This document shows positions 41,820 through 49,741 of a stretch of DNA of 64,000 nucleotides, one piece after another. The notes beneath the pieces are model-generated. The model made no database searches, was not told where the DNA came from, and saw nothing but the letters and a program-made list of their open reading frames with translations. The stretch spans positions 1 through 64,000 of the forward strand of contig CAIJMU010000127.1 of NCBI GenBank assembly GCA_903821875.1. Direction: 5' to 3'. The stretch is from an uncultured Spirochaetota bacterium. GTDB lineage: Bacteria; Spirochaetota; Spirochaetia; Treponematales; Rectinemataceae. The position numbers and the translations under genes are program-made. Positions within the stretch are counted from its first letter, which is position 1, and every line of letters begins with the position of its first letter.

Positions 41820-41945
41820 CTAGGCCGGGTCGACAAAATCCTTTTCGAAAGCCTGCCTGAAACTGGGTGAAGTCGCAGCCCAGTCCAGGAAGTCAACCCT
41901 GAATGGGAGCTCGGACTCGGAGACGGCATCCCGGAGCAGAATCAT
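41820..41945 (-). pseudogene. C-terminal remnant of a nucleotidyltransferase
   Basis: The frame reads LLRDAVSESELPFRVDFLDW, then AATSPSFRQAFEKDFV and a stop. This is the C-terminal signature of MNT-type minimal nucleotidyltransferases (of HEPN/MNT pairs). The catalytic GS...D-x-D part is missing, replaced by the start of the helicase gene on the other strand. No HEPN partner gene was found next to it. Confidence 0.5.
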
Positions 41946-44763
41946 GCCTATTCGAGGTCTCTTGGATCAGATCCCGGTAGGGCCCCCCAATTTCATCCTC
42001 GGTCACGTAGCGATGGGACCGCTATCCCTCTCCCCGCCCATGCCTTACTATCCCCCCATGGCCAGCGGAAACCCTGAAGTCTCCTGCCTGCGCCTGACCC
42101 CCTCGGGCAGGTTGCGGCTGCGGGCGGAGCAGATCGGCGACGAAGAGGGTGCGCCGCGCCGCGTGCTGGAAGCCTTCCGCTCAGGCGAGTCCGAGGGCCT
42201 TTTCGAACTGGCTTCCCGTCCTGCAGGCACTCTCCTTTCTGCAGACCTCGCCTACTGGCGCGATTTTGCCGCCTCCTATCTGACGCTCCGCTGTCAGACA
42301 CCTACGGGCGTGGCCAGCATCGAGGCGCTGGAACCTCCCCCCGAGAGCGAGCTCCTGTCCCTTCTCCTTTCAGCGCCACCCATGGAAGGGGCCGAATACC
42401 TGGATGCCAATGTGTTCCGCGCACTCTGGCATTCGCTCGATGAGTGGGTTTGCGCCGAAGCAGCCCAGGCCGGTGGTCTGGGAGCCTTCCTGGCCGCGCG
42501 GGCACCGCTCTGGCACCAGGTCGGGCGCGTCTGCTTCCACCTCGCGGAGAACAAAAAGGATCCTGAATTTCCCTTTGCCTTCCTGGTCACCTATGCCCCA
42601 CGGCTCTCGGCCTCCGACAAGGTACGCTACCAGCCACTGGCAAAGGCCTTGCAGGAATTCGCCGGTGAGGGCGACCGGAAGGCACTCGCCAAGCTCCTCA
42701 CGCCCATCCACGAAGCCGCCAAGAAAAGCCCCCTCGTGCGCGAACTCCTCGACGCCCAGGACATCTACCATCCGCTCGCGTGGACGGCCGAGGAAGCGTA
42801 TCGCTTCCTCCAGGAGATTCCCCTCTTCGAGGAGAGCGGGGTCCTCGTGCGCGTGCCAGACTGGTGGGCCAAGCGACCCCGTCCGCGCGTGACGGTGAGC
42901 ATCGGCTCGCGCGGGAAGGGCCTCCTCGGTGCTGCTTCGATGCTCGACTTCGACATAGGTATCGCCCTCGGAGAAGAGAGCCTCTCGGCCCGGGAAATAA
43001 AGGACATACTTGCCGGTACTTCGGGCCTCGCCTTCATCAAGGGGCGCTGGGTCGAGGTCGATCCCGAGCGGCTGGCCGAAGCTTTGGCCCACTGGAAAAA
43101 ACTCGGGAAAAAGGCTGGCGAGGAGGGCATCTCCTTTGTGGAGGGCATGCGGCTGTTGGCCGGCGCGCCCTCGGATCTCACAACTACGATGGATGGCTCG
43201 GTGGCACAGTGGTCCCTCGTGACGGCCGGCCCCTGGCTGAAGGAAACCCTCGATGGCCTGCGCTCGCCCGAGGGCATCGAACTCGCGCTGCCGGGCAGGG
43301 AACTCAAGGCGGAGCTCCGCCATTACCAGGAGAGCGGAGTCCGCTGGCTCTGGCTTTTGTCGCGGCTCGGACTCGGAGCCTGCCTGGCCGACGACATGGG
43401 CCTCGGAAAGACCATCGAGGTCCTTGCCCTGCTTCTGGTCGAGAAACGAGAATCAACCAAGGGGCCGGGCAGGAGGCAGGCGAAGGAAACAATTGCTCCT
43501 TCAATCCTTATCCTGCCTGCCTCGCTGCTCGCGAACTGGAAGGCTGAAATCGAGCGCTTTGCGCCGAGCCTGCGTTGTCGCTTTATCCATCCCTCGATGG
43601 ATGGCGCATATGACGGGCACGACCTTGCCGAACTCGACTTAGTCCTTACCAGCTACGGCATGCTCGGGCGCAAGCCCTGGCTGCTGGACTTCAACTGGAA
43701 CCTCGCCATCCTCGACGAAGCCCAGGCGATCAAGAATCCCGGTTCGAGCCAGTCGAAGGCAGTACGGAAGCTCCGTGCGCACAGCAGGATCGCCCTTACG
43801 GGTACCCCTGTCGAAAACCGCCTCTCCGACCTCTGGTCCCTCTTCGACTACCTGAACCCCGGGCTCCTGGGCAGCGCCGCCCGCTTCAAGGATTTTGCCG
43901 CCGACCTCGAAAAGCGGGAGGGAGAGCGTTATGCGCCGCTCCGCAACCTGGTCAGGCCCTACATCCTCCGGCGCCTCAAGACCGACCGGAGCGTCATCGC
44001 CGACCTTCCCGACAAGACGGAAATAAAGGCCTATTGCGGACTATCGAAGGCACAGGCCGCAGTCTACAGTTCCGTTGTCGAGGACTTCGCCGAAGCCCTC
44101 CGGAATGCTGGAGGAATAGCCCGTCGCGGCCTCATCCTGGCCTCCCTGATGAAGCTCAAGCAGGTCTGCAACCACCCCTCGCAGCTTTCTGGCGACGGCG
44201 CCTGGGATGCGGCCGATAGCGGAAAATTCGCGCGCTTGGGCGAACTCTGCGAGGAGATCGCCTCGCGGCAGGACAGGGTCCTCGTGTTTACCCAGTTCCG
44301 CGAGATGACCGGGCCCCTCGAGGCCTTCCTGGCGGGCATCTTCGGCAGGCGGGGGCTCGTCCTCCATGGTGGCACCCCGGTTGCCGCCCGGCGCAAGCTG
44401 GTGGAGGCCTTCCAGTCGGAGGACGGCCCACCCTTCTTCGTGCTCTCGCTCAAGGCTGGCGGAACGGGCCTCAACCTCACGGCTGCCTCGCACGTCGTGC
44501 ACTTCGACCGCTGGTGGAATCCGGCAGTGGAGAACCAGGCCACCGACCGGGCCTTCCGCATCGGGCAGAAAAAGAACGTTCTAGTACATAAGTTCGTGTG
44601 CAGGGGCACGGTCGAGGAACGGATCGACGCCCTCATCGAGGAGAAGACCGGACTGGCGCGGGACCTCCTCGAGGGTGGCTCGGAGCTTGCGCTCACCGGA
44701 ATGACGAACGAGGAACTCCTGTCGACGGTGAGCCTCGACCTCGACCGCGCGCGCGCCTGGTAA
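41944..44763 (+). CDS. SNF2-family DEAD-like helicase/ATPase
   Basis: A 939-residue protein with ~430 N-terminal residues of low conservation and a C-terminal two-lobed SNF2 motor. Motif I is LADDMGLGKTIEVLALLL, motif II NLAILDEAQAIKNP, motif III IALTGTPVENRLSDLWSLFD, motif V LSLKAGGTGLNLTAASHVVH and motif VI NQATDRAFRIGQKKNVLVHK. Such proteins remodel protein-DNA complexes by ATP-driven translocation. The start at 41944 has GGAG eight bases upstream but also overlaps a pseudogene on the other strand; the ATG at 42058 is possible. The partner downstream carries the SWIM finger that many bacterial SNF2 proteins use. Confidence 0.9.
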   Translation: MPIRGLLDQIPVGPPNFILGHVAMGPLSLSPPMPYYPPMASGNPEVSCLRLTPSGRLRLRAEQIGDEEGAPRRVLEAFRSGESEGLFELASRPAGTLLSADLAYWRDFAASYLTLRCQTPTGVASIEALEPPPESELLSLLLSAPPMEGAEYLDANVFRALWHSLDEWVCAEAAQAGGLGAFLAARAPLWHQVGRVCFHLAENKKDPEFPFAFLVTYAPRLSASDKVRYQPLAKALQEFAGEGDRKALAKLLTPIHEAAKKSPLVRELLDAQDIYHPLAWTAEEAYRFLQEIPLFEESGVLVRVPDWWAKRPRPRVTVSIGSRGKGLLGAASMLDFDIGIALGEESLSAREIKDILAGTSGLAFIKGRWVEVDPERLAEALAHWKKLGKKAGEEGISFVEGMRLLAGAPSDLTTTMDGSVAQWSLVTAGPWLKETLDGLRSPEGIELALPGRELKAELRHYQESGVRWLWLLSRLGLGACLADDMGLGKTIEVLALLLVEKRESTKGPGRRQAKETIAPSILILPASLLANWKAEIERFAPSLRCRFIHPSMDGAYDGHDLAELDLVLTSYGMLGRKPWLLDFNWNLAILDEAQAIKNPGSSQSKAVRKLRAHSRIALTGTPVENRLSDLWSLFDYLNPGLLGSAARFKDFAADLEKREGERYAPLRNLVRPYILRRLKTDRSVIADLPDKTEIKAYCGLSKAQAAVYSSVVEDFAEALRNAGGIARRGLILASLMKLKQVCNHPSQLSGDGAWDAADSGKFARLGELCEEIASRQDRVLVFTQFREMTGPLEAFLAGIFGRRGLVLHGGTPVAARRKLVEAFQSEDGPPFFVLSLKAGGTGLNLTAASHVVHFDRWWNPAVENQATDRAFRIGQKKNVLVHKFVCRGTVEERIDALIEEKTGLARDLLEGGSELALTGMTNEELLSTVSLDLDRARAW

Positions 44764-44799
44764 ACCGAAAGCTGAAAGGGAACCTTGAAGGAGGATGCT

Positions 44800-45966
44800 A
44801 TGGGATATGGATATCATCAGTGGGCCCCCTATGTCAGCGTGGCCGAAAAGCGCCGCAGGGCCGAGCGTGAGATGGCCAAGCTCGCGAAGAAGGGCAAGCC
44901 CGCCCTGCCCGTCCACATCGAGGGCAAAACGATCGCGAAAACCTTCTGGGGCAAGGCCTGGTGCACGCATCTGGAAAGCTACAGCGACTTCGAAAACCGC
45001 CTTCCCCGCGGCCGGACCTACGTGCGGAACGGCTCGGTCTGCCACCTCGAGATCCTGGAGGGAGAGGTCCGGGCCAAGGTGGCAGGGAGCGAACTCTACA
45101 CAGTTACCATTACCATACAGCCCCTCGGCCCCAAGGCCTGGAAGGCCATAAAGGAACGCTGCTCGGGCAGCATTGCCTCGATCCTTGATCTCCTGGGCGG
45201 CAAGTTGGCCGACGGAGTCATGGCCGTCGTCACCGACCGCGAGACGGGGCTCTTTCCCAAGCCGCGCGAGATTGCCCTCGCCTGCACCTGCCCCGACTGG
45301 GCTGACATGTGCAAGCACGTGGCAGCGGTCCTCTACGGCGTCGGCGCGAGGCTCGACGAGCATCCGGAGCTCCTCTTCCTCCTTCGGGGCGTCAACCACG
45401 AAGAACTTGTCTCTGCCAAGGTCGAGGAAGCGGTGTCGGCAGTCGTCAAGGGTGGCTCGCGGAGGCGTGTCGCGGAGGCCGATCTTTCAGCTGTCTTCGG
45501 GATGGACCTGGGCGGGGAGGATGCGAAGGCTGCGGGCGCTGACAGGGTGACGCGTACGCAGTCGGGTCTTCCGGTGAAGGCCAAGCCGGAGAAGCGCGAC
45601 ACAAGAAAGGGCACTGCCGTGGCCACGCTGCCCACCGCAAAGCGCCCGGCGGCACTGGCGGCTGCCCCGTCTGGAAAAACCCAGGCTCCAGCTGCTCCCT
45701 CCCTGGTTCCCGAGCTTCCCCTGTCCATTTCCGGCACGCACATTCGTGAGCTCAGGGAACGCCTCGGCTTGAACGGCAAGGACTTCGCGGCCCTCCTGGG
45801 GGTTTCTGGAGGGGCAGTCTCCTCATGGGAGAGGAAACGTACGGCGCTCAATGTGCAGGACAGGAGCCGCCTGGCCCTGGAGAAGGCCTGGAAAAAAGCC
45901 GCCAAGAAGGAAGCTGCCGCCGAGGCACGGAGAAGAGCCAAGCCAGGGAAATCCTCCCCACGCTGA
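44800..45966 (+). CDS. SWIM zinc-finger protein with C-terminal XRE-type HTH
   Basis: A 388-residue protein. The N-terminal half (about 1-200) has the typical SWIM-protein opening YGYHQWAPYVSVAEKRRRAE and KTFWGKAWCTHLES; the SWIM finger is ALACTCPDWADMCKHVAAVL (CxC...CxH). A basic, Ala/Lys-rich linker follows. At the C-terminus (about 310-370) an XRE-like HTH is visible: LRERLGLNGKDFAALLGVSG with GAVSSWERKRTALNVQDR. It starts 36 bases after the SNF2 stop behind GAAGGAGG. SWIM fingers often pair with SNF2 helicases in DNA binding; the added HTH suggests sequence-directed loading. Confidence 0.88.
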   Translation: MGYGYHQWAPYVSVAEKRRRAEREMAKLAKKGKPALPVHIEGKTIAKTFWGKAWCTHLESYSDFENRLPRGRTYVRNGSVCHLEILEGEVRAKVAGSELYTVTITIQPLGPKAWKAIKERCSGSIASILDLLGGKLADGVMAVVTDRETGLFPKPREIALACTCPDWADMCKHVAAVLYGVGARLDEHPELLFLLRGVNHEELVSAKVEEAVSAVVKGGSRRRVAEADLSAVFGMDLGGEDAKAAGADRVTRTQSGLPVKAKPEKRDTRKGTAVATLPTAKRPAALAAAPSGKTQAPAAPSLVPELPLSISGTHIRELRERLGLNGKDFAALLGVSGGAVSSWERKRTALNVQDRSRLALEKAWKKAAKKEAAAEARRRAKPGKSSPR

Positions 45967-46120: not shown

Positions 46121-47233
46121 ATGAGTACGATCGGCATCAAGCTCGCTGACGGCAAGTTCTATCCCATCCTCGATGACGGCAGGCCTGCCGGCAAGAAACT
46201 TGTCGTGACGACGGTCAAGGATGGACAGAAGAGCGTTCAGATCGATGTCTACCGTGGCGAGGGCGAATCGGTAGTCGGCGCAGACTACATGGGCAGCCTC
46301 GTGGTCGATGGTATCCCCGAGCAGACCGCTGGCACGCCAGATGTCAAGCTCGAACTCGAGCTCGACGACGCAGGCCACCTGAAGGCCCGGGCCTCGGTGG
46401 CAGGAGCGGAAGAGACCACAGAAGTCTCCCTTGAATCCCTGGTCGAGGATCCAGGTTATGAGACACCTGACTTCGATATCGAGGAAGACCGCACGGACAG
46501 CCTCCCCGAGGAGGGCCTGGCCTCCGACGATTTGAAAATGGATATCGACGATGATTTCGAGATTCCCGACATGGACTCATCAAGCTACGGCAGCAACGAC
46601 GATGAGGTAACCACTCCCGAAGAGGGGGCTGGCCTCCTTGCCAAGGCGAGCGAGAGTCAGCGGGAACGGCATGGCCTGCCCATAACTGCCTTCGTGGGCG
46701 GCGCCGTTGTGCTGATTGTCCTGGGCGCCCTCCTGTGGATGTTCCTCCGCAGTCCAGCTGCGGTGTCCAAAGCACCCGCTGCGCCGGCGGTGGCAGCCAA
46801 ACCCGTGGAGAGCAAGACTCCAGCGGCAACAGCCGCTCCCGCCCCGAAGCCCACAGCAGCCCCCGCAGCATCGGCAGTATCTCCGGCAGCCAAGACGGCT
46901 GCCAAGCCAGCCGCCCCTCCAGAGGCAAGCGCTGCCAAGGCAGGCTCCACTCAAACCACTCCCGCTGCCAAAGCCACAGAGGCTGCGCCAGCAACCAAGC
47001 CCGCGATGGCCCCCCCCACGAAGGCAGGTGCCAAGCCCGCAGCTGCGCCCACCAAAGCGGAGCCGGCTCCCGCAGGCAAACGCTACAGGATCAAGTGGGG
47101 CGACACACTCTGGGACATCGCCTGGGCCAGCTACCGAGACCCCTGGCTCTATCCGCGTATCGTGAAGGCCAACAAGCTCCGGAACCCCGACCGCATCATG
47201 GCGGGCACCTGGATCGTGATTCCCCGGCGCTGA
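46121..47233 (+). CDS. membrane-anchored LysM protein with DnaK-SBD-like N-terminus
   Basis: A 370-residue protein. Residues 1-95 resemble the beta-sandwich substrate-binding domain of Hsp70: IGIKLADGKFYPILDDG, KKLVVTTVKDGQKSVQIDVY, GSLVVDGIPEQTAGTPDVKL and ELDDAGHLKARASV. An acidic segment (about 96-180) precedes one membrane helix (about 186-209). A long Ala/Pro/Lys linker leads to a C-terminal LysM domain (YRIKWGDTLWDIAWASYRDP, NPDRIMAGTWIVIPRR). With the N-terminus inside and LysM in the periplasm, it could link a cytoplasmic client-binding domain to peptidoglycan. The start at 46121 is chosen because homology begins there. Confidence 0.75.
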   Translation: MSTIGIKLADGKFYPILDDGRPAGKKLVVTTVKDGQKSVQIDVYRGEGESVVGADYMGSLVVDGIPEQTAGTPDVKLELELDDAGHLKARASVAGAEETTEVSLESLVEDPGYETPDFDIEEDRTDSLPEEGLASDDLKMDIDDDFEIPDMDSSSYGSNDDEVTTPEEGAGLLAKASESQRERHGLPITAFVGGAVVLIVLGALLWMFLRSPAAVSKAPAAPAVAAKPVESKTPAATAAPAPKPTAAPAASAVSPAAKTAAKPAAPPEASAAKAGSTQTTPAAKATEAAPATKPAMAPPTKAGAKPAAAPTKAEPAPAGKRYRIKWGDTLWDIAWASYRDPWLYPRIVKANKLRNPDRIMAGTWIVIPRR

Positions 47234-47323: not shown

Positions 47324-49741
47324 ATGCCTAAAGTTCCGTTCCAGCTCCGTCGTTCCACCCTGGCTGGCGCGAGCGCCCTGGTCCTGGGTCTCATTGCCCT
47401 TTCAGCCTGCCTCGGCCAGACAATCCCTTCAACGCCCGCGCCCGCAGCCCCGCCCTTCGGCCTCGATGCCCAGGCCTACGCGGAGATTCTCGAAAAACGC
47501 GACGCAAAGGCCGTACTCGGGCTTCCCGAAGCAGTTTTTGAGAATCCGGGACCAAAGGGTCCCCTCGCCTGGTTCGCCACGGCAGCCTGGCTCGAGAAGC
47601 GATCTGCTCCAGACCTCGATGCGACGTCACGGATCCTGGACCTCTACTCACGGGCTGAGGCAACCTCCAAGGGCTTTGTCCACGACGAGTCCTCGAGGAG
47701 ACGCACGGCGATGCTTTTCACAATTGCCCGCGCTTCGCCAAAAGGCGGGCCCGGGCGAAGCGCTGCATGGGAAACCGCCCTCGCCTCGCTGCCCCAGGAA
47801 GCTGCGGGGATCGATGCGGAACTGCGGAGGCTCGAGGCTTTGTCGGCCCTCGGGAACTGGGACGCGATCATCAGGCTCCTGCCCTCCTTCGCCGCACGGG
47901 GCGACCTGGGGACCTCCATCCCACGGAGCGGAGCCCTCCTGTGGTTCGAGGCCGAGGCGAGGCTGCGGCGCAACCTCGGGGACGACGGAAAGATCGGTGC
48001 AGCTGCGCTCGGCAGGCTCCTCGCCCTCGGGAAGGGCCCCTGGGTCGCGCGCGGGATAGACCTCGCCGGAGAGCTTGCCACCGGGGGCAGGGCTGCCCCG
48101 GATGCGACAGTCATCACAATTGCCAAAATGCGACAGGCTGTCGAAAGCCGTATCTACGCCGAAGCCTATTCGCTGTCGAGGCGCGCCCTTCCCGCCATCC
48201 TCGCGGGCCGGCGCGACCGCGACCTCGTTACCGACCTGTCGAAGGCCTACCTCTTTTCGGGCAAGTCGGGCGAGGGGCTCGCACTCATGGACGAGCTTGG
48301 CGCGGTGTCGCCTGCAGCGAGGGTCGGTGCTTCGCCTGAATGGACTGCAGCCTGGTACAAGGCCCGCATGCTCAAGACCCTCCTCCGCAACGAGGAAGCG
48401 AATGCCCTCTTCGGGGAACTCGCGGCGACAGCCTCGGGGGAAACCGACCGCGACTCTGCGCTCTGGTACCTCCTCGACGGGGAATTGTCGCTCGTGGAGA
48501 CGCGTCTCGCCGCGGAGAAAGCCTGGACATCGCGAAGCGACCGGGACCACGCAGTCGCGCGGCGCAAGGTCGCCCTCATCGCCAAGGCTGCAAGGGGCTG
48601 GACTGACCCGAAGGCGTTCAGCGACCTCGCGGGGACAGCGTTCCGGCAGTTCCTGGGCAGCGGTGACTGGGAGGCTGTCGAAGCCTTTGCGCTTTCTGTG
48701 GCAACCCGACTGGCCCCCGACCTCGGTGCGAGGAGCCTCTACCTCGCTGGCCGCGCCAGGGAACTCGGGTTCATTGGCCGTGCCGACAGCTCTCCCCTCA
48801 TCATGCTGGCAGATGCAGCGCAACGGGATGAAGCCGGTCCAGCCCGCCCCGGCGACGGCATTCGTGCTGCGGCTCGCTTCGAGGCAGTCCTCGGTATGGC
48901 CGATGCTCCCGACTATTACAGAGTGACAGCCGCCGCCCGCCTTGGCCGCGACATTCCCCCCATTGGAGCAGCCCAGGCGGAATCCGGCGCAAACCCTGCT
49001 GCACGTACTGCCCCCCCGGGGACAGACAGCATTGCAGCTGCGCTGGAAGGCATTGTCGCGCTGGGCATGCCCGAACTCGCCTGGAGCCTGGCATCGACGC
49101 GTCTCGACTTCCTCGAGGACGCCAGGCTCCTCTCCCTCGCCGAAGCCTGCTCTGAACTCGGGCAGGTCACCTGGTCGATGCGCTTTGCCAACAGCCTCGA
49201 CTCGCGTTCGGGGGGAACCCGGCGGACCCAGGAACTCCTCTACCCACGCCCCTGGCTCTCCGAACTGCAGGCTGCCCTGGGCGACTCTGGCATTCCCGAG
49301 GAGATCGCCCTTGGCCTCGTCCGTTCAGAAAGCTGGTTCGACCCCAGCATCAAGAGCCCGGTCGGAGCCACAGGCCTCGCCCAGCTCATGCCGGCCACCG
49401 CCGTGGAACTCGCTCACAAGCTTAAGCTGAAAGTGTGGTCCATCGAGTCACCAGGCGACAATCTCATGCTAGGCATGAAGATGTTCCGGGACCTCTACCT
49501 GGAGACGGGAGGCCGCGCCATGCGCTCGGCCTTTGCCTACAACGCAGGACGGACGCGGCTCAAGCGCTGGGTGGCTGAATCAGGGTGGCTTCCCGATGAC
49601 CTCTTCCTCGAGACCCTCCCCTTTGACGAGACCCGCCAGTACGGCCGGAAGATTGTTTCCGCCTCAGCACGGTATGGGGCTCTGTATTATGGGAAGGGCA
49701 GCGCTGAATCAGTGCGGGCGATACTCAGGCCGCGAGACTGA
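47324..49741 (+). CDS. lipoprotein lytic transglycosylase (SLT family)
   Basis: An 805-residue protein with a signal peptide and lipobox LSAC (Cys about residue 29), hence a lipoprotein. The central ~600 residues are helical, Ala/Leu-rich repeats like the doughnut domain of Slt70. The C-terminal SLT domain has the catalytic Glu in ALGLVRSESWFDPSIKSPVG, ATGLAQLMPATAVELAHKL and AFAYNAGRTRLKRWV. It cleaves peptidoglycan glycan strands with 1,6-anhydro product formation. It lies 90 bases after the LysM gene, a natural functional partner. Its 3' end overlaps the next, convergent gene. Confidence 0.9.
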   Translation: MPKVPFQLRRSTLAGASALVLGLIALSACLGQTIPSTPAPAAPPFGLDAQAYAEILEKRDAKAVLGLPEAVFENPGPKGPLAWFATAAWLEKRSAPDLDATSRILDLYSRAEATSKGFVHDESSRRRTAMLFTIARASPKGGPGRSAAWETALASLPQEAAGIDAELRRLEALSALGNWDAIIRLLPSFAARGDLGTSIPRSGALLWFEAEARLRRNLGDDGKIGAAALGRLLALGKGPWVARGIDLAGELATGGRAAPDATVITIAKMRQAVESRIYAEAYSLSRRALPAILAGRRDRDLVTDLSKAYLFSGKSGEGLALMDELGAVSPAARVGASPEWTAAWYKARMLKTLLRNEEANALFGELAATASGETDRDSALWYLLDGELSLVETRLAAEKAWTSRSDRDHAVARRKVALIAKAARGWTDPKAFSDLAGTAFRQFLGSGDWEAVEAFALSVATRLAPDLGARSLYLAGRARELGFIGRADSSPLIMLADAAQRDEAGPARPGDGIRAAARFEAVLGMADAPDYYRVTAAARLGRDIPPIGAAQAESGANPAARTAPPGTDSIAAALEGIVALGMPELAWSLASTRLDFLEDARLLSLAEACSELGQVTWSMRFANSLDSRSGGTRRTQELLYPRPWLSELQAALGDSGIPEEIALGLVRSESWFDPSIKSPVGATGLAQLMPATAVELAHKLKLKVWSIESPGDNLMLGMKMFRDLYLETGGRAMRSAFAYNAGRTRLKRWVAESGWLPDDLFLETLPFDETRQYGRKIVSASARYGALYYGKGSAESVRAILRPRD

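What the first reader, a model, noticed from the sequence alone, without database searches (positions are those of the whole stretch)
46121..47233. Chaperone-like substrate-binding domain tethered to the wall: DnaK-SBD/TM/LysM
The N-terminal 95 residues match the Hsp70 substrate-binding sandwich without the ATPase domain. They are followed by an acidic stretch, one membrane helix and a periplasmic LysM. A cytosolic client-binding domain linked through the membrane to peptidoglycan is unusual. The next gene is a lytic transglycosylase, suggesting a role in cell-wall growth or protein delivery to the wall.
Basis: partly seen in the sequence, partly recalled or inferred. Interest (0 to 1): 0.6.

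Follow-up and report, generated by a model that had tools for sequence, protein, structure and literature searches.

The report
Flagellum-linked chaperone-domain wall anchor in spirochaetes
This gene makes a membrane-spanning protein with the peptide-gripping half of the Hsp70 chaperone inside the cell and a cell-wall-binding domain outside; it is found only in flagellate spirochaetes and sits beside a flagellar wall-cutting enzyme, so it probably anchors or helps build their internal flagella.

Summary
Window 46121-47233 encodes a 370-aa protein: an Hsp70 substrate-binding beta-sandwich (Pfam E 7e-9; predicted fold matches Hsp70 SBDs at Z 16), no ATPase and no lid, an acidic disordered linker, one membrane helix and a C-terminal LysM. 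No signal peptide; charge bias puts the SBD inside. It is no oddity of one genome: 85 homologous sequences share the layout, all in Spirochaetota, with the peptide-groove positions more conserved than the rest.

The next gene belongs to the BB0259 family, named in Borrelia as the flagellar lytic transglycosylase. In the window's own family the SBD-TM-LysM gene is in 10 of 11 genomes with fliF and 0 of 19 without, while the transglycosylase persists in 15 of those 19. A divergent Borrelia ortholog (BB0260 position) lacks LysM.

Best explanation: a bitopic flagellar-assembly adaptor, working like the polar landmarks HubP/FimV (LysM, membrane helix, long acidic cytosolic arm) but with reversed orientation and an Hsp70 SBD as head. 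Architecture, fold and tracking with flagella are shown; client, peptide binding, localisation and partner contact are inferred. I found no paper describing it.

The parts
46121..47233 (+). SBD-TM-LysM protein, 370 aa
   Evidence: open frame; Pfam; 85 homologous sequences with the same layout
46130..46435 (+). Hsp70 substrate-binding beta-sandwich (residues 4-105), cytosolic by inference
   Evidence: PF00012 394-497 E 7.2e-9; PDB profile E 3.6e-14; fold Z 16
46436..46666 (+). acidic disordered cytosolic linker (residues 106-182)
   Evidence: 25 D/E against 5 K/R; pLDDT under 50 for most of it
46463..46477 (+). linear motif TPDFD (residues 115-119), conserved just after the SBD
   Evidence: [ILV]P.F found 153 times in family linkers against 9.7 in shuffles; positions
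46562..46576 (+). second motif copy IPDMD (residues 148-152)
46676..46750 (+). single transmembrane helix (residues 186-210)
   Evidence: hydropathy peak 2.59; helix in model, pLDDT about 90
46751..47077 (+). Ala/Pro-rich periplasmic spacer
   Evidence: sequence; disordered in model
47078..47230 (+). LysM domain at the C-terminus (residues 320-370)
   Evidence: PF01476 E 1.4e-6; pLDDT about 95
47324..49741 (+). BB0259-family lytic transglycosylase, 805 aa, lipoprotein-like N-terminus (LSAC), SLT domain at residues 650-759
   Evidence: NF047373 287.8 bits, cut-off 234; PF01464 E 1.1e-22; same neighbour in 71 of 94 loci in a phylum sample

Best explanation
A bitopic inner-membrane adaptor for the periplasmic flagella of spirochaetes. 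Its N-terminal Hsp70-type peptide-binding sandwich, with no ATPase and no lid, sits in the cytosol as a passive receptor for an extended peptide segment of a partner. The acidic arm carries repeated [ILV]PDFD motifs that probably dock further partners. The membrane helix and the periplasmic LysM hold the assembly to peptidoglycan where the BB0259-type lytic transglycosylase must open the wall for the hook. It would work like the polar landmark proteins HubP/FimV: a wall-anchored membrane hub that gathers cytosolic flagellar factors at one place. Shown here: architecture, fold, groove conservation, gene linkage and co-occurrence with flagella. Inferred: cytosolic side, peptide binding, identity of the client, contact with the transglycosylase, localisation.
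For: Fold and homology. Topology: no N-terminal hydrophobic segment in 85 sequences, and K/R within 12 residues are more frequent on the N-side of the helix in 68, equal in 14, fewer in 3. Groove positions (equivalents of DnaK 401-406, 426-438, 472; contact list from memory) are more conserved than the rest, P 2e-4; the Gln equal to DnaK Q433 is invariant in 74. Co-occurrence in family f1: 10/11 fliF+ against 0/19 fliF-, Fisher P 4e-7, while the transglycosylase does not track fliF, P 0.63. All 92 genomes with it in a 297-genome phylum sample have fliF or flhA; the fliF-less family f12 shows none above the threshold. Transglycosylase directly downstream in 71 of 94 loci and in 71 of 73 loci of a separate set. 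BB0259 enzyme activity is needed for the hook to pass the wall, and it binds FlgJ (PMC8517470). HubP/FimV share LysM, membrane region and acidic cytoplasmic domain (PMC12918733), and HubP recruits FlhF-FliG-FliF (PMC11236974).
Against: No direct evidence of localisation or binding. Borreliaceae orthologs have lost the LysM, so wall binding is not universal. In two closed genomes the transglycosylase gene lies elsewhere. The co-occurrence test ignores phylogeny: the 19 fliF- genomes may reflect only one or a few losses of flagella. Sigma-28 sites upstream are barely above chance. The motif was not docked on the SBD in the model.
Confidence: 0.5

Rival explanations
1. It is a recruitment and activity factor for the BB0259-type transglycosylase alone: it places the enzyme at flagellar sites and the SBD reports the state of the motor, without any hub or landmark role.
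For: The transglycosylase is the only neighbour shared by nearly all loci. Borrelia keeps the gene pair without the LysM.
Against: Non-flagellate relatives keep the enzyme without this protein. Some genomes keep this protein without a detected enzyme of that family (f9, f17). The most conserved and elaborate part is cytosolic, away from the enzyme.
Confidence: 0.2
2. It is a membrane station of a dedicated flagellar Hsp70 system: the Hsp70/J pair at the end of the flagellar operon hands clients to, or takes them from, this SBD at the flagellar base.
For: A second Hsp70 plus a J-domain protein lies behind flhB-flhA-FapA in the window's genome, and bb0264 is the last gene of the Borrelia flgB operon (PMC10802407). 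In family f1 the second Hsp70 is detected only in fliF+ genomes.
Against: The SBD clade is separate from both DnaK and the flagellar Hsp70s (100/99 support), so common descent with that Hsp70 is not shown, and no interaction is known.
Confidence: 0.15
3. One reading: a factor in cell-wall growth or delivery of proteins to the wall.
For: LysM and a neighbouring transglycosylase; ftsK-like and uppP-like genes lie in the same region in several relatives (names from sequence appearance, not tested).
Against: Absent from all 19 non-flagellate genomes of the family, most of which keep the transglycosylase.
Confidence: 0.08
4. The SBD fold has been kept only as a structural head or dimer module and no longer binds peptides; the acidic arm or the LysM does the work.
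For: The DnaK arch Met404 is Ala and Thr403 is Leu here; no lid, no ATPase.
Against: Groove positions are the more conserved ones and the Gln equal to DnaK Q433 is invariant; lidless SBDs bind peptides with fast exchange (known for DnaK, from memory).
Confidence: 0.15

Closest known systems
Hsp70/DnaK substrate-binding domain (PF00012, C-terminal part)
   Same: Same fold (Z 16, rmsd about 3 over 113 residues), significant sequence homology, conserved groove positions including the Gln at DnaK Q433
   Different: No ATPase domain, no interdomain linker, no helical lid; loop between strands 2 and 3 is two residues shorter; membrane-tethered
HubP/FimV polar landmark proteins
   Same: LysM, single membrane region, long cytosolic arm rich in acidic residues; link to flagella (PMC12918733, PMC11236974)
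   Different: Reversed orientation (N-terminus inside, LysM at the C-terminus); Hsp70 SBD instead of the FimV-type TPR; no FimV family match in NCBIfam
BB0260-position protein of Borreliaceae
   Same: Diverged SBD (E 5e-9 to 5e-6), long acidic linker, one helix, directly upstream of BB0259
   Different: Ends about 25 residues after the helix: no LysM
BB0259/LTase of Borrelia (neighbour gene)
   Same: Window neighbour is over the family cut-off
   Different: Family retained here also in non-flagellate relatives

Membership tests
Hsp70 chaperone family | substrate-binding beta-sandwich | tested here: met
Hsp70 chaperone family | actin-like ATPase domain | tested here: not met
   protein starts at the SBD; Pfam match begins at profile position 394; same start in the homologs
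Hsp70 chaperone family | alpha-helical lid after the sandwich | tested here: not met
   residues 109-182 predicted without structure
Hsp70 chaperone family | binds extended hydrophobic peptides | not testable with these tools
   only groove conservation was measured
LysM proteins | LysM domain over the curated cut-off | tested here: met
   PF01476 28.6 bits, cut-off 20.9
HubP/FimV landmarks | LysM, membrane helix and acidic cytosolic arm in one protein | tested here: met
HubP/FimV landmarks | C-terminal FimV-type TPR domain or FimV family match | tested here: not met
   no FimV or TPR match
HubP/FimV landmarks | LysM N-terminal to the membrane region, acidic domain C-terminal | tested here: not met
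   order is reversed
HubP/FimV landmarks | polar localisation and recruitment of FlhF | not testable with these tools
   needs microscopy and binding assays
BB0259-type transglycosylase (neighbour) | NF047373 over the curated cut-off | tested here: met
   287.8 against 234 bits

The most novel reading that the evidence does not exclude
Many spirochaetes use a wall-anchored landmark whose cytosolic head is an ATPase-free Hsp70 peptide-binding domain. It recognises a peptide tag on a flagellar factor and so sets where periplasmic flagella are built and where the wall is opened: a HubP/FimV-like hub of independent origin and a new use of the Hsp70 fold.
Probability: 0.3. Interest if true: 0.8.

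Novelty: new variant of a known kind. Interest (0 to 1): 0.62.

Why it matters
How spirochaetes place periplasmic flagella at a fixed position near the cell ends and open the wall only there is open, and I found no HubP/FimV-like landmark described for them in the papers searched. This conserved, apparently uncharacterised gene offers a direct candidate with a clear knockout test. It also appears to be an Hsp70 peptide-binding domain kept, with its groove, in a protein with no ATPase, which would show the fold used as a plain peptide receptor.

Tried and rejected
(1) Chance match to Hsp70: rejected, all 74 members match and the fold agrees. (2) Longer start at 45851: rejected as overlap with the upstream gene; homologs start at the position of 46121. 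(3) T. pallidum Y2H locus TP0046-TP0048 (PMC2386257): first taken as the ortholog, then dropped; gene order (SBD-LysM, SLT, mnmG-like, adenosine-deaminase-like) fits TP0042-TP0045 numbering from memory, and searches for TP0042/TP0043 found nothing relevant. (4) Sigma-28 promoter: 2 of 71 upstream regions at score 11 or more, 0.2 expected, too few to argue from. (5) Descent of the SBD from the flagellar Hsp70: the tree shows one SBD clade but, unrooted, not its source. (6) Cis docking of the PDFD motif in the groove: not seen in the full-length model, motif region pLDDT 40-50. (7) GltJ match in NCBIfam: Ala/Pro low-complexity only, far below its cut-off. (9) The second-look structural list holds essentially Hsp70 SBD entries; no other fold came up there, which excludes nothing.

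Full report
What is there. Window 46121-47233 (+) is an open frame of 370 codons. Residues 4-105 match the Hsp70 profile only at positions 394-497 of 599, E 7.2e-9, and residues 322-368 match LysM, E 1.4e-6. The gene starts at the SBD; there is no ATPase part. The next gene, 47324-49741, carries an SLT domain and belongs to NCBIfam NF047373, flagellar assembly lytic transglycosylase of the BB0259 type, 287.8 bits against a cut-off of 234. Its N-terminus has a lipobox-like LSAC.

Is it more than chance. From these and genome-search loci I extracted 85 homologous sequences (a few places are held twice). All have the SBD at the very start with a form of the motif IGIKLADGxFYP, no signal peptide, one strong helix and a LysM at the C-terminus. 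An alignment of 74 SBDs finds solved Hsp70 SBDs at E down to 3.6e-14, and each of the 74 alone matches PF00012. The predicted structure is an eight-stranded sandwich whose best matches are Hsp70 SBDs, Foldseek E 5e-8 and Z 16. A full-length model gives three confident modules (SBD, helix 186-210, LysM) joined by disorder.

Topology. No hydrophobic N-terminus exists in any member, and lysine and arginine within 12 residues of the helix are more frequent on the N-side in 68 of 85, fewer in 3. With a C-terminal LysM this puts the SBD in the cytosol and the LysM in the periplasm. This is inference, not experiment.

The groove. Positions equivalent to DnaK 401-406, 426-438 and 472 are more conserved than the rest of the domain (P 2e-4; P 2e-3 with a stricter list; contact residues taken from memory). 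The Gln at DnaK Q433 is invariant, the arch residues are Ala and Val/Ala, and residue 7 is Lys or Arg throughout. The lid is absent. The picture is a lidless, ATP-independent peptide receptor.

The arm. The cytosolic linker is acidic (about 31% D+E, 3% K+R) and runs from 31 to 931 residues. It carries a repeated linear motif: [ILV]P.F occurs 153 times against 9.7 in shuffled linkers, with a first copy just after the SBD in most short-linker members (YETPDFDIEED in the window).

Tie to flagella. In the window's own family (30 genomes) fliF is present in 11. The SBD-TM-LysM gene is in 10 of these and in none of the 19 others; the missing one, G002, is in 650 contigs and also lacks the transglycosylase. 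The transglycosylase itself is found in 15 of the 19 fliF-less genomes. Fisher P is 4e-7 for the SBD gene and 0.63 for the enzyme. Seven of the fliF-less genomes were tested for flhA and have none. In a phylum sample of 297 genomes 92 carry the SBD gene at E 1e-18; 90 have fliF and the other two, G084 and G303, have flhA. The fliF-less family f12 shows none above that threshold. The counts are not corrected for shared ancestry.

Tie to the transglycosylase. It lies directly downstream in 71 of 73 loci of one set and in 71 of 94 places in the phylum sample; the two sets may overlap in species. Most exceptions are on other contigs or in genomes without a detected enzyme; in two closed genomes the two genes are far apart. 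In Borrelia, BB0259 activity is required for the hook to pass the wall, and BB0259 binds FlgJ (PMC8517470).

Variation. Borreliaceae have a diverged ortholog in the BB0260 position: SBD (E 5e-9 to 5e-6), acidic linker and helix, but no LysM. A T. pallidum-like genome (G078, by size and gene order) keeps the full layout beside the transglycosylase. Brachyspira- and Leptospira-like genomes, identified only by placement and size, show DnaK alone. The SBDs form one clade apart from DnaK and from the flagellar Hsp70s (100/99).

How it may work. The combination of LysM, one membrane helix and a long acidic cytosolic arm is that of HubP/FimV (PMC12918733), which hold FlhF, and through it FliG and FliF, at the pole (PMC11236974). 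The order of parts here is reversed and the head is an Hsp70 SBD, and no FimV family matches, so it is not a member of that family; it may work like one. I propose a flagellar-site adaptor that binds a peptide of a cytosolic flagellar factor and fixes it to the wall where the transglycosylase acts. A second, flagellum-linked Hsp70 with a J-domain protein stands at the end of the flagellar operon in this genome, and bb0264 ends the flgB operon in Borrelia (PMC10802407); it may share clients with this SBD.

Novelty. Searches of the open-access library for LysM with Hsp70 SBD, for BB0260 and for TP0042 found no description; subscription papers are not covered. The parts are known; the architecture with this flagellar tie appears undescribed.

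Noticed in passing
L171:3071-15705 (G000 contig C126, same genome as the window): Flagellar operon end: flhB, flhA, FapA, a coiled membrane protein, then a second Hsp70 (607 aa) and a J-domain/HEAT protein. In family f1 this Hsp70 is detected only in fliF+ genomes: a dedicated flagellar Hsp70/J pair.
   Followed up: partly
L051:14-1432, L169:6185-7564, L176:2861-4267, L191:5077-6423: A TPR protein with an N-terminal membrane helix (BB0261 type; the Treponema member also has a weak restriction-endonuclease-like hit) is transcribed divergently from the SBD gene in several spirochaete lineages.
   Followed up: partly
genomes G005-G029: The BB0259-type transglycosylase persists in 15 of 19 genomes without fliF, so its label as flagellum-specific may be too narrow outside Borrelia.
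   Followed up: no
window 41944-45966: SNF2-family helicase followed by a SWIM zinc-finger plus HTH protein directly upstream of the SBD gene; not a common neighbour of it elsewhere.
   Followed up: no
L031:7005-7952: In 25 treponemal loci a secreted RHS-repeat-like protein lies upstream on the same strand.
   Followed up: no
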